From positions 372,001-436,000 of the forward strand of contig NZ_OCNE01000001.1 of assembly GCF_900230195.1 (NCBI RefSeq): 64,000 bases of DNA, written 5' to 3'. Positions 3,672 to 63,466 of the stretch are shown here, piece by piece. A model generated the notes under the pieces. It was given only the letters and a program-made list of their open reading frames with translations. It was not told the origin of the DNA and ran no database searches. The stretch's first letter is position 1; each line of letters opens with the position of its first letter. A program made the translations under genes and the position numbers. The stretch comes from Streptomyces zhaozhouensis. Lineage in GTDB: Bacteria > Actinomycetota > Actinomycetes > Streptomycetales > Streptomycetaceae.

Positions 3672-4193
3672 CTACGCCGTGCCCGCCGTGGCCGGTGGCT
3701 CCTGCTCCTCGGGCGCGGGCTGGCCCGTGAGGCGCACCTGTACGGCGGCGGCCGCGCGGTCGTGCAGGCCGCGGCCGTCGCGGTCCCAGATGAGGGCCGG
3801 GATCGCCAGCGCCAGCAGCAGGCAGCGGAGGGCCGAGCGCGGGAAGGAGAGGCGCTCGCCGGAGAGGTGCACCACCCGCAGCCCCAACAGGCGCTTCCCC
3901 GGGGTCATTCCGACGGTGCCGACGGTCATGAGGCTCATCAGGGTGAAGACCGCCAGCGTCCAGTTGTTGGCCGTGGCGAGGTTCCCCTGGGCGAGGAGAC
4001 CGTATGCGATCAACGCGCAGAGCAGCCAGTCCACGCAGATGGCCGCGAGCCTGCGCCCGACCGGCGCGATCGAGCCCGGACCCTCCCTGGGGAGACCCAG
4101 GCGTTCGCCCCGGTATCCGAAGTCGATTCCCATGCCCTCGGCCGCCGCGCGGGGGCCGGAGAGCCACGAACCAATTGCCTGCCGGTTGTCCAC
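3672..4193 (-). CDS. RDD family membrane protein
   Basis: A 173-residue protein with the RDD-type pattern: PVGRRLAAICVDWLL opens the first membrane segment, a second segment follows around residues 78-95, TPGKRLLGLRVV is the typical loop, and RDGRGLHDRAAAAVQV closes the domain. RDD proteins are small integral membrane proteins; some have been linked to sodium export, but no function can be given here. It is divergent from glnA across a 197-bp region with GlnR-like sites, an arrangement conserved in Streptomyces. The ATG at 4193 begins MDNRQAIGSW, consistent with relatives. Confidence 0.88.
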   Translation of the reverse strand: MDNRQAIGSWLSGPRAAAEGMGIDFGYRGERLGLPREGPGSIAPVGRRLAAICVDWLLCALIAYGLLAQGNLATANNWTLAVFTLMSLMTVGTVGMTPGKRLLGLRVVHLSGERLSFPRSALRCLLLALAIPALIWDRDGRGLHDRAAAAVQVRLTGQPAPEEQEPPATAGTA

Positions 4194-61767: not shown

Positions 61768-62499
61768 GTGGCGAAGCTCAATCAGATCATCGCCGTCGAG
61801 AAGGGCGCCAAGAGCAGGACGGCTCAGGACGTCGCGGCGGCCCATCGCGAGGTGCAGAAGCCCGCGTCGCTGGCCGGCATATCGCGCACCTACCAGCCGA
61901 AGGACGAGGAGGGCGAGCAACTGCCGCCCGAGTCGACCCGCGTTCAGGTCAAGGCCGAGACCGTGCTCAGAGAGATGGCGGCCTCGCTGACCCGGCTCTT
62001 CGACGTCACCGCGACCAAGGACTGGGCGAACTGCACGGCCCGCGCGGACGTCGTGGTCGACGGCCGGACCATCGTGCCGGACGTGCCGGTCAGCTACCTG
62101 CTCTTCCTGGAGAAGCAGCTGACCGAGGTGCACGCGTTCGTCAGGAAGCTGCCGGTGCTGGACGCCGCGGAGACCTGGTCGCTCGACCCGTCGACCGACT
62201 GGTGGAAGACCGAGCCGGTCCGCACCATCCGCACCCGCAAGGTCCCGCGCAACCACGTCAAGGCCGAGGCCACCGAGAAGCACCCGGCGCAGGTCGAGGT
62301 GTACTACGAGGATGTGCCGATCGGTTACTGGTCCACGGTGAAGTTCTCCGGCAGCCTCTCGGCCCGCCGGCTGAACGAGCTGCTGGAGCGCGTGGAGAAG
62401 CTGCAGAACGCGGTGAAGTTCGCCCGTGAGGAGGCCAACTCGACGGAGGTCGACGACCGTCGCGTCGGGGACGCGGTCTTCGGCTACCTCCTCGGCTGA
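61768..62499 (+). CDS. Conserved hypothetical protein (DUF7873-like)
   Basis: A 243-residue soluble protein, highly charged and helical. Conserved-looking segments are MAKLNQIIAVEKGAKSRTAQ, ISRTYQPKDEEGEQLPPEST, LTRLFDVTATKDWANCTARA, VPVSYLLFLEKQLTEVHAFV and VEVYYEDVPIGYWSTVKFSG. I recall close relatives across Streptomyces and other bacteria under a DUF label, probably DUF7873; no function is known. GTG 61768 follows AAGGGGGAG. It ends 13 bp before a terminator-like hairpin and is immediately upstream of the permuted tRNA-like RNA. Confidence 0.75.
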   Translation: MAKLNQIIAVEKGAKSRTAQDVAAAHREVQKPASLAGISRTYQPKDEEGEQLPPESTRVQVKAETVLREMAASLTRLFDVTATKDWANCTARADVVVDGRTIVPDVPVSYLLFLEKQLTEVHAFVRKLPVLDAAETWSLDPSTDWWKTEPVRTIRTRKVPRNHVKAEATEKHPAQVEVYYEDVPIGYWSTVKFSGSLSARRLNELLERVEKLQNAVKFAREEANSTEVDDRRVGDAVFGYLLG

Positions 62500-62512
62500 A
62501 CGCCCCAAGGAC

Positions 62513-62540
62513 ACCTCCGCGGTGGGGACACGGCGGAGGT
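62513..62540 (+). terminator. Hairpin after the conserved hypothetical gene
   Basis: ACCTCCGC (62513-62520) pairs with GCGGAGGT (62533-62540), 13 bp after the stop codon. It separates this gene from the downstream RNA locus. Confidence 0.55.
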
Positions 62541-62683
62541 CGACGCGCCCCGGACTGAGACCCCGGGAGCGCGTGAGCACAAGCTGAAACTGAACGTTCA
62601 GACTGACGGAGGCGGCTGTCAACCGCTGTGAAGCTCAGACTCTCGCTCAAGATTCAGCATCGCCGCCGATCGCCGGAGCGACC

Positions 62684-62805
62684 GGGGACGGACACGCCGT
62701 CGCATGCGAGTTCGACTCTCGCCTGCACCTCTCCGTGGTGCGGTAGTTCAAAGGTAGAACACGACGGCATGACCCTGATCCGTCCCCTCTTCAACGGCTC
62801 GGGCG
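62684..62805 (+). ncRNA. Circularly permuted tRNA-like RNA (3' half upstream of 5' half)
   Basis: The upstream half has the T-arm GCGAG-TTCGACT-CTCGC (62706-62722), then the 3' acceptor strand CTGCACC (62723-62729) and T62730. After a 6-nt spacer comes the 5' acceptor strand GGTGCGG (62737-62743), TA, and the D-arm GTTC-AAAGGTA-GAAC (62746-62760). The acceptor strands pair over 7 bp (one G-U). GCCGTCG (62696-62702) pairs with CGACGGC (62762-62768) as anticodon stem, extended by GGGGACGG (62684-62691) with CCGTCCCC (62780-62787). A farther helix, CGCCGGAGC (62671-62679) with GCTCGGGCG (62797-62805), has one mismatch. U8, A14, G18G19 and TTCGA are intact. No normal anticodon loop or U33 is visible, so decoding is doubtful. 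The D-arm and T73 resemble glycine tRNA. Confidence 0.75.
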
Positions 62806-62827
62806 TGCGTATCAGGCGGTACCCCAG

Positions 62828-62859
62828 GGACCCGGGAGAGGGCAAAACTCCCGGGTCCC
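62828..62859 (+). terminator. Strong intrinsic terminator after the tRNA-like RNA
   Basis: GGGACCCGGGAG (62828-62839) pairs perfectly with CTCCCGGGTCCC (62848-62859), followed by GTCTTCGTCT. It ends a transcript with no protein gene immediately upstream, supporting an RNA gene here. Confidence 0.85.
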
Positions 62860-62986
62860 GTCTTCGTCTCCGCCTACAGCCCTTCGTGCGCGAAGGCGCC
62901 TTCCCCGACACGGTGCGGGCCGGGCGTCACGGCTGAGGCGTCGAAACCCGTGGCCAACGCCTCCGCCGGTGGCCGAAACTGGGGGG

Positions 62987-63466
62987 ATGACGAGCACGTT
63001 GCGGATCATCGCGGGGGACGCCACCGAGCCGCAGGCGAAGGGGGCGAAGATCATCGCTCATGTCTGCAACGACCGGGGTGGCTGGGGCAAGGGCTTCGTG
63101 CTGGCGCTGTCGCGGCGGTGGCCGGAGCCGGAGCGTGACTACCGGCTCTGGTACCGGGGGCGGGCGGGGAACGACTTCGGGCTGGGCGCGGTGCGGCTGG
63201 TCCGGGTGCGGCCGGATCTCCAGGTGGCGAACATGATCGGTCAGCACGGGACGAAGACCGGCAGCAACGGGCCGCCGATCCGTTACGAGGCGGTCGAACG
63301 CTGTCTGACCGCCGTCGCCGAGCGGGCGCTGGCCGAGGAGGCGTCCGTGCACATGCCCCGGATCGGCTGCGGCCTGGCCGGCGGGAAGTGGGAGCGGATC
63401 GAGCCGATCATCCGGCGGACGCTGTGCGCGAGGTCGGTGCCCACCACCGTCTACGACCGGCCGTGA
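62987..63466 (+). CDS. Macro domain protein (ADP-ribose-binding/hydrolase type)
   Basis: A 159-residue stand-alone macro domain: LRIIAGDATEPQAKGAKIIAHVCNDRGGWGKGFVLALSRRW holds the ADP-ribose-binding loop and catalytic-loop glycines, GQHGTKTGSNGPPIRYEAV follows, and MPRIGCGLAGGKWERIEPII is the second ligand loop. Such proteins bind or hydrolyse ADP-ribose, ADP-ribose-1''-phosphate or ADP-ribosylated targets. ATG 62987 directly follows GGGGGG; the upstream in-frame GTG 62969 is possible. It lies just after the RNA locus and before a Ser/Thr kinase; no functional link is shown. Confidence 0.88.
   Translation: MTSTLRIIAGDATEPQAKGAKIIAHVCNDRGGWGKGFVLALSRRWPEPERDYRLWYRGRAGNDFGLGAVRLVRVRPDLQVANMIGQHGTKTGSNGPPIRYEAVERCLTAVAERALAEEASVHMPRIGCGLAGGKWERIEPIIRRTLCARSVPTTVYDRP

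What the first reader, a model, noticed from the sequence alone, without database searches (positions are those of the whole stretch)
62671..62859. A circularly permuted tRNA-like RNA gene with an extended long-range helix and its own terminator
Seen directly: T-arm plus 3' acceptor strand lie upstream of 5' acceptor strand plus D-arm, only 7 nt apart. All long-range helices close: acceptor 7 bp, anticodon stem 7 bp (62696-62702 with 62762-62768) and a further 8 bp (62684-62691 with 62780-62787). The invariant U8, A14, G18G19 and TTCGA are present. Known: permuted tRNA genes occur in some algae and archaea, and permuted two-piece tmRNA in alphaproteobacteria and cyanobacteria. Inference: cleavage in the 7-nt spacer by RNase P and 3' processing would give a two-piece, chargeable tRNA-like RNA. 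It may not decode, since no U33/anticodon loop is formed. I know of no described function.
Basis: partly seen in the sequence, partly recalled or inferred. Interest (0 to 1): 0.93.

Follow-up and report, generated by a model that had tools for sequence, protein, structure and literature searches.

The report
Inside-out tRNA mimic beside DUF7873
Beside a gene of unknown function (DUF7873), this bacterial genome carries a structured RNA built on an inside-out copy of a transfer RNA, and the same gene-RNA pair recurs in Streptomyces and in many phages; the two likely form an RNA-protein particle, which would be a new relative of the Y RNA particles.

Summary
The permuted tRNA-like RNA (62671-62805) is the 3' half of a structured RNA that starts near 62581, just downstream of a DUF7873 gene (61768-62499). 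A covariance model trained only on viral relatives scores 59.7 bits or more in exactly the 31 of 61 genus genomes that have DUF7873. The pair recurs in phages, often with two permuted tRNA-likes in tandem. Many viral copies have CCA exactly at tRNA positions 74-76 and U before the acceptor 5' strand, which suggests RNase P-type processing. The tRNA-like core resembles that of Ro60-linked Y RNAs (Rfam YrlA), but the stem motif of Ro60-linked Streptomyces Y RNAs is absent, and 10 of the 31 genomes, this one included, lack a TROVE (Ro60) match. Best reading: a Y RNA-like scaffold whose protein partner is DUF7873. Binding, processing and cellular role are predicted, not shown; no expression data were available. 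I rate it a new variant of a known kind.

The parts
61768..62499 (+). DUF7873 (PF25283) gene, 243 aa, GTG start; predicted protein partner of the RNA
   Evidence: Pfam 395.6 bits, cut-off 27, profile 1-242 of 244
62581..62606 (+). 5' scaffold strand, AAGCTGAAACTGA type; in the window GCTGAA 62583-62588 can pair with TTCAGC 62653-62658
   Evidence: conserved block in A4; minimum-energy fold
62611..62627 (+). plain hairpin (62611-62615/62623-62627) where relatives carry the first permuted tRNA-like element
   Evidence: folds and comparison with loci that have both elements
62635..62658 (+). conserved linker, 3' scaffold strand of the upstream domain
   Evidence: A4 columns around TTATCGCTC
62671..62678 (+). 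helix H3, 5' strand (pairs with 62798-62805, 7 of 8)
   Evidence: sequence; H3 covaries in relatives
62696..62702 (+). anticodon-stem equivalent, 3' strand
   Evidence: sequence; mismatched-partner control
62706..62722 (+). T-arm with loop TTCGACT
62723..62729 (+). acceptor stem, 3' strand
62730..62736 (+). spacer TCTCCGT: position 73 T, C74, and T at -1 of the acceptor 5' strand
62737..62743 (+). acceptor stem, 5' strand
62744..62760 (+). TA linker and D-arm
62762..62768 (+). anticodon-stem equivalent, 5' strand
   Evidence: sequence
62769..62778 (+). internal-loop strand with the ACTGA-type motif (here CCTGA)
   Evidence: A5 consensus
62779..62787 (+). helix H2, 3' strand
62789..62796 (+). 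conserved CTTAAACG motif (here CTTCAACG)
62798..62805 (+). helix H3, 3' strand
   Evidence: sequence
62827..62859 (+). 3' hairpin, 12 bp; relatives often carry a loop NYGGATAYG here, the window does not

Best explanation
A DUF7873 gene and the conserved RNA beside it, built on a permuted tRNA-like module, are predicted to form a ribonucleoprotein that works like the Ro60-Y RNA particles, with DUF7873 likely taking the place of Ro60. Shown here: the RNA structure, its covariation, its tight linkage to DUF7873 in bacteria and phages, and a tRNA-like core shared with Ro60-linked Y RNAs but with different flanks. Inferred: DUF7873 binds the non-tRNA scaffold (helices H2/H3 with the AUCGA/CUUAAACG loop, and the 3' hairpin loop GGAUAYG where present); the tRNA-like module is bound or processed by tRNA enzymes (RNase P at the -1/+1 site, CCA-adding enzyme at C74); and the particle steers RNA decay, or shields or mimics tRNA, which would suit the tRNA gene arrays of several phages that carry it.
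For: Linkage: R1 hits of 59.7 bits or more in exactly the 31 of 61 genus genomes with DUF7873; RNA found beside the gene in 6 of 6 DUF7873 genomes of a phylum sample of 296; R1 hits in 91 of 99 viral loci, 61 of 69 without the 30 training loci. No other neighbour family occurs in more than 11 of 133 viral and phage loci. RNA can lie upstream of the gene (L244) or on the other strand (L126), so it probably acts in trans. Structure: H2/H3 covariation 0.818 against 0.247 shuffled and at most 0.202 slid. Y RNA likeness: full-length YrlA match, 35.8 bits; the same model R1 has hits 0.9-1.4 kb from TROVE in at least 33 of 39 TROVE genomes (counted by eye), 12 of 18 such hits in nine loci read again covering only the tRNA-like core. 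Processing: CCA placement, U at -1, C74.
Against: No binding, transcript or processing data. DUF7873 has no recognisable RNA-binding fold and is not basic overall (pI 6.5). YrlA matches score far below Rfam's gathering score, and tRNA gene pairs score 36-39 with YrlA, as high as these RNAs. Six of 18 TROVE-linked hits were called full length. In Streptomyces copies U at -1 is not frequent (30 of 128) and CCA rare (20 of 128). Eight of 99 viral loci and the Microcoleus phage locus showed no RNA beside the gene.
Confidence: 0.55

Rival explanations
1. The RNA is a decoy: its tRNA-like modules occupy tRNA-cutting or tRNA-modifying enzymes of the host or of competing phages, and DUF7873 only stabilises it.
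For: Several phage copies sit inside tRNA gene arrays; a paper on the Salmonella operon proposes such a role for YrlA's tRNA-like domain (PMC7790460, passage).
Against: No anticodon loop is formed for anticodon nucleases to cut; Streptomyces chromosomes keep the pair outside tRNA arrays; about 30 of 80 Streptomyces loci lost one tRNA module but kept the scaffold.
Confidence: 0.17
2. The RNA is a cis-acting 3' UTR structure that controls the DUF7873 message, for example its stability.
For: It usually starts within about 200 nt of the stop codon on the same strand.
Against: In L244 it lies upstream of the gene and in L126 on the opposite strand, both still adjacent; tRNA mimicry with CCA is not needed for a UTR.
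Confidence: 0.1
3. It is an ordinary Y RNA that works with Ro60 and PNPase; DUF7873 is a bystander.
For: Shared tRNA-like core; YrlA match.
Against: No TROVE match in this genome or in 10 of 31 DUF7873 genomes; Ro60-linked stem motif in 0 of 211 loci.
Confidence: 0.06
4. It matures into a two-piece, charged tRNA-like RNA that enters translation, like a split tmRNA.
For: CCA at positions 74-76, U at -1, C74; permuted order as in two-piece tmRNA (recalled).
Against: No anticodon loop; U3-A70, not the G3-U70 of tmRNA (sequence; tmRNA rule recalled); no tmRNA match in the stretch.
Confidence: 0.06
5. DUF7873 and the RNA are a toxin-antitoxin pair of the protein-RNA type, the RNA holding the protein in check.
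For: Portable protein gene plus adjacent RNA, patchy distribution (31 of 61 genus genomes).
Against: No PADLOC match at E up to 1; no nuclease fold found; ToxI-like short tandem repeats (recalled) not seen.
Confidence: 0.05
6. The locus is a relic of two ordinary tandem tRNA genes.
For: Neighbouring tRNA genes imitate the core.
Against: Covariation of H2/H3, conserved flanks, linkage to one gene.
Confidence: 0.01

Closest known systems
Bacterial Y RNA, YrlA type (Rfam RF02553), with Ro60/Rsr
   Same: Order T-arm, acceptor 3' strand, acceptor 5' strand, D-arm on a long stem; gene next to that of a protein; tandem copies also beside TROVE genes in Streptomyces.
   Different: Partner gene is DUF7873, not TROVE; TROVE-linked stem motif absent; stem with H2/H3 and AUCGA/CUUAAACG; RNA mostly downstream of the gene; score below Rfam's gathering score.
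Circularly permuted tRNA genes (algae, archaea)
   Same: 3' half encoded before the 5' half.
   Different: The anticodon stem runs on into H2, so no anticodon loop and no ends there to ligate; conserved scaffold.
Two-piece (permuted) tmRNA
   Same: Acceptor strands in permuted order with a short spacer.
   Different: No tmRNA match in the stretch; U3-A70; no tag reading frame identified.
GOLLD and ROOL RNAs
   Same: Noncoding RNAs tied to phages or tRNA arrays (GOLLD in tRNA arrays: passage of PMC9569102; ROOL recalled).
   Different: No match to either in the window or in the ten phage and plasmid loci scanned; shorter, with permuted tRNA-likes.

Membership tests
Bacterial Y RNA, YrlA (RF02553) | permuted tRNA-like domain on a stem | tested here: met
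   full-length match 1-114, 35.8 bits; structure
Bacterial Y RNA, YrlA (RF02553) | Rfam gathering score 69 | tested here: not met
   35.8 bits; but TROVE-linked Streptomyces Y RNAs also stay below (30.1-46.9) and tRNA gene pairs reach 36.4-39, so the score is not discriminating
Bacterial Y RNA, YrlA (RF02553) | Ro60 (TROVE) gene in the genome | tested here: not met
   0 matches in G000, 100% complete; 10 of 31 DUF7873 genomes without
Bacterial Y RNA, YrlA (RF02553) | stem motif of TROVE-linked Streptomyces Y RNAs | tested here: not met
   GGTGCG-N0-2-A(G/A)GCAG in 0 of 211 DUF7873 loci; GGTGCG-N0-2-AGGCAG, AGGCAA or AGACAA in 8 of 9 TROVE loci
Bacterial Y RNA, YrlA (RF02553) | binds Ro60 | not testable with these tools
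   needs biochemistry
Permuted tRNA gene | anticodon loop formed after ligation of the ends | tested here: not met
   the stem continues into covarying H2
Ordinary tRNA | recognised by ARAGORN | tested here: not met
   0 genes in the window
tmRNA | Rfam tmRNA match and G3-U70 | tested here: not met
   no tmRNA row at E up to 10; U3-A70 in the window
Type III toxin-antitoxin | endoribonuclease toxin with RNA antitoxin | tested here: inconclusive
   no PADLOC match; fold unknown
DUF7873 (PF25283) | Pfam profile above cut-off | tested here: met
   395.6 bits, cut-off 27

The most novel reading that the evidence does not exclude
DUF7873 and its RNA are a new class of mobile ribonucleoprotein: a scaffold RNA that displays one or two inside-out, RNase P-cut, CCA-ended (possibly charged) tRNA mimics, carried by phages, several of them inside tRNA arrays, and by Streptomyces, to capture or evade the enzymes that act on tRNA.
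Probability: 0.3. Interest if true: 0.95.

Novelty: new variant of a known kind. Interest (0 to 1): 0.85.

Why it matters
It gives a widespread protein family of unknown function (6969 relatives in one search) a concrete molecular partner, and it would add a second, Ro60-independent protein family to the tRNA-mimicking RNAs so far tied to Ro60. If the processing signals mean what they seem to, bacteria and phages make two-piece tRNA mimics outside tmRNA. Tests are direct: bind, map ends, delete. The phage copies among tRNA genes make a role in the contest over tRNA testable.

Tried and rejected
Relic of tandem tRNA genes: rejected. Neighbouring tRNA-Lys genes imitate the core in two genomes (55-57 bits), but those matches cover only positions 17-116 of 135.

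Known Rfam family at gathering score: none in the window. The RNA itself has no blastn match in phage records and an exact pattern none in viral contigs; viral relatives appeared only through the protein. PHROGs, NCBIfam, PADLOC and PDB sequences gave nothing useful for DUF7873. Fold searches gave no clear relative; the best Z (9.2, 3kdq) comes with rmsd 8.2 and that protein's function is unknown; an unlisted fold is not excluded. Conserved extra neighbour genes were sought and not found. A peptide reading of the six-base period in the scaffold strands (alternating K/R and L codons) was seen by eye and not pursued.

Selections. One search scanned 209 of 213 loci (4 had under 350 nt downstream); they are not dereplicated and some contigs appear twice. 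The descriptor demands pairing in T-stem and acceptor, so counts for those helices are biased; H2, H3 and the anticodon-stem equivalent were not part of it. One search used 311 of 313 elements (2 lacked full flanks), then 71 and 79 after dereplication. A4 holds 57 of 58 listed loci (I left out L155, where an ordinary tRNA lies between gene and RNA). A5 holds 30 of 34 listed (L158, L166, L183, L210, divergent ones, left out), so R1 favours typical copies. Only 30 of 55 tRNA genes of this genome were fetched and 29 parsed.

Papers. DUF7873 and PF25283 occur in none of the papers searched (its 13 papers hold only 'circularly permuted tRNA'). Other searches. The primary Y RNA papers (Chen 2014, Sim and Wolin 2018, Wang 2018, Sim 2020) are not held, so I cannot exclude that their surveys include some of these RNAs. 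Seen as passages only: PMC8394870, PMC7790460, PMC10085705, PMC7824862, PMC9569102, PMC8190616, PMC12282133. RNase P's liking for U at -1 and for the CCA end is recalled.

Full report
The sequence. ARAGORN finds no tRNA and Rfam nothing at gathering score in the window. With a lax threshold on 62480-62980, Rfam's YrlA (bacterial Y RNA-like, RF02553) matches 62685-62789 along its whole length at 35.8 bits, E 3.1e-6; its gathering score is 69. It is the only match at E <= 0.001 in the whole genome, but sub-threshold hits also occur in 7 of 14 control genomes, and tRNA gene pairs reach 36-39 bits, so this alone is a lead, not proof.

The partner gene. The gene ending at 62499 is DUF7873. A DNA search in 61 genus genomes finds relatives of the RNA in 21; all 25 loci then in hand carry DUF7873. 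Several contigs of the genus sample have the lengths of named Streptomyces contigs, so the genus is taken to be Streptomyces. A profile search finds DUF7873 in 31 of the 61. A covariance model, R1, built from 30 viral copies and no Streptomyces copy, scores the window at 87.5 bits, E 6e-21, and 59.7 bits or more in exactly those 31 genomes (compared by eye). The next tier starts at 53.6 bits. In a phylum-wide sample of 296, six genomes have DUF7873; R1 finds five at E <= 1e-10 and the sixth at 50.5 bits beside its gene. Two others hit at 55-57 bits; both are pairs of neighbouring tRNA-Lys genes.

Phages. A protein-level search finds DUF7873 in 73 phage records: Vibrio 29, Gordonia 12, Rhizobium 12, Klebsiella 7, Serratia 6, Arthrobacter 3, Pseudanabaena 2, Rhodococcus 1, Microcoleus 1. 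I read 12 of these loci. In most of them a stretch without annotated protein genes follows the gene, in several inside a tRNA gene array. R1 has a hit beside the gene in 11 of 12: from 93.2 bits in Arthrobacter phage Mimi down to 27.1 (E 1.5e-4) in Vibrio phage D520; the Microcoleus phage shows none beside the gene. Two elements in tandem are seen in seven of the 12 (Mimi, Phendrix, NiceHouse, Ziko, Keelan, Pam2, FBKp24). Over all loci, 192 of 209 have at least one element by the descriptor and 120 at least two, against 2 of 1045 shuffles. R1 finds the RNA in 91 of 99 viral loci at E <= 1e-6, or 61 of 69 without the training loci (counted by eye).

Structure. H2 and H3 were not used to select the sequences. 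Tested alone, 84.9% of their cells are paired against 53.5% (sd 1.3) with partners shuffled and 33-43% slid; the covariation score is 0.818 against 0.247 shuffled and at most 0.202 slid. The anticodon-stem equivalent (6 bp) scores 9.65 for true and 4.63 (sd 0.29) for mismatched partners in second elements, 9.02 and 4.67 (0.34) in first ones. Conserved unpaired motifs are AUCGA/CUUAAACG between H3 and H2 and a linker around UUAUCGCUC. Many copies end in a 10-13 bp hairpin of changing sequence with the loop NYGGAUAYG: 57 of 149 loci, 3 in a control stretch.

The window's copy. It keeps the second element with H2 and H3 and has a plain hairpin where the first element should be. Of 80 Streptomyces loci, 32 show one element by the descriptor; of these, two have a first element with a long loop, one lacks anchors, and 29 have no T-loop there and mostly a plain hairpin. 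So the first module is dispensable while the scaffold stays.

Processing signals. Right after the acceptor 3' strand, CCA stands exactly at tRNA positions 74-76 in 35 of 71 first and 31 of 79 second elements (dereplicated), and at most twice at any other offset. U precedes the acceptor 5' strand in 37 of 71 and 56 of 79, while U makes up 21% and 27% of the rest of the loops. This is mainly a viral trait: in Streptomyces elements (not dereplicated) U at -1 is seen in 30 of 128 and CCA in 20 of 128, but C74 in 127 of 128. The window has U at -1 and C74. This genome's own tRNA genes behave alike: CCA in 3 of 29 parsed, C74 in all 29. That is what cleavage by RNase P and CCA addition would leave, but cleavage is not shown.

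Relation to Y RNAs. TROVE (Ro60) matches exist in 39 of 61 genus genomes; the listed ones cover about 60-75 of 442 model positions, so not all need be classical Ro60. Ten of 31 DUF7873 genomes have none, this one included. In nine such loci read again, 12 of 18 hits cover only the tRNA-like core and six, of 33-50 bits, the whole model. Eight of nine carry GGTGCG-N0-2-AGGCAG or a close variant; none of 211 DUF7873 loci carries GGTGCG-N0-2-A(G/A)GCAG. So both kinds of RNA share the tRNA mimic and differ in the part that, in Y RNAs, holds Ro60. A review says that YrlA's basal stem binds the Ro60 homologue and its tRNA-like domain binds PNPase (PMC8394870, passage).

The protein. AlphaFold gives a confident model (pLDDT 93.8, pTM 0.69) without a clear relative. 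Invariant residues in 56 sequences include N88, W137, K158, H172, Q175, R220 and N224; that any of them contact RNA is a guess. The protein is not basic overall (pI 6.5).

Mechanism. The best reading is a Y RNA-like particle in which DUF7873 takes Ro60's place. Shown: linkage, structure, covariation, shared core, changed flanks. Inferred: binding, processing and role. The RNA can lie upstream of the gene (L244) or on the opposite strand (L126), which speaks for action in trans. I rate it a new variant of a known kind: the tRNA-mimic module is known from YrlA, while I found this scaffold and partner neither in Rfam at gathering score nor in the papers searched.

Noticed in passing
L144 (Gordonia phage Phendrix, MN096369.1) 1072-1600: A tmRNA match (Rfam RF00023, 89 bits, E 3.5e-33) in a stretch of the phage tRNA array where the record annotates nothing.
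   Followed up: no
L151 (Klebsiella phage vB_KpM_FBKp24) 4018-4097: Annotated as a suppressor tRNA (tRNA-Sup-TTA), but it overlaps the linker, T-arm and acceptor strand of the second permuted element, so it is probably a misreading of this RNA.
   Followed up: partly
L291-L295: Tandem Y RNA-like elements beside TROVE genes in the genus; Rfam's YrlA finds them only at 30.1-46.9 bits, below its gathering score of 69.
   Followed up: partly
3' of the second element in many loci, e.g. L143 about 4128-4160: A hairpin with a stem of changing sequence and a conserved 9-nt loop NYGGATAYG in 57 of 149 loci, 3 in a control stretch; it may be a protein-binding site rather than a terminator.
   Followed up: partly
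window 62969-63466: A gene with a weak DarG-like match (28.6 bits, cut-off 250) next to the RNA; of 80 Streptomyces loci only S. sedi L032 shares it there.
   Followed up: no
5' scaffold strand, window 62581-62606, and relatives in A4: A six-base period runs through the scaffold strands of many relatives and would read as alternating K/R and L codons; helix geometry or a coding origin are both open.
   Followed up: no
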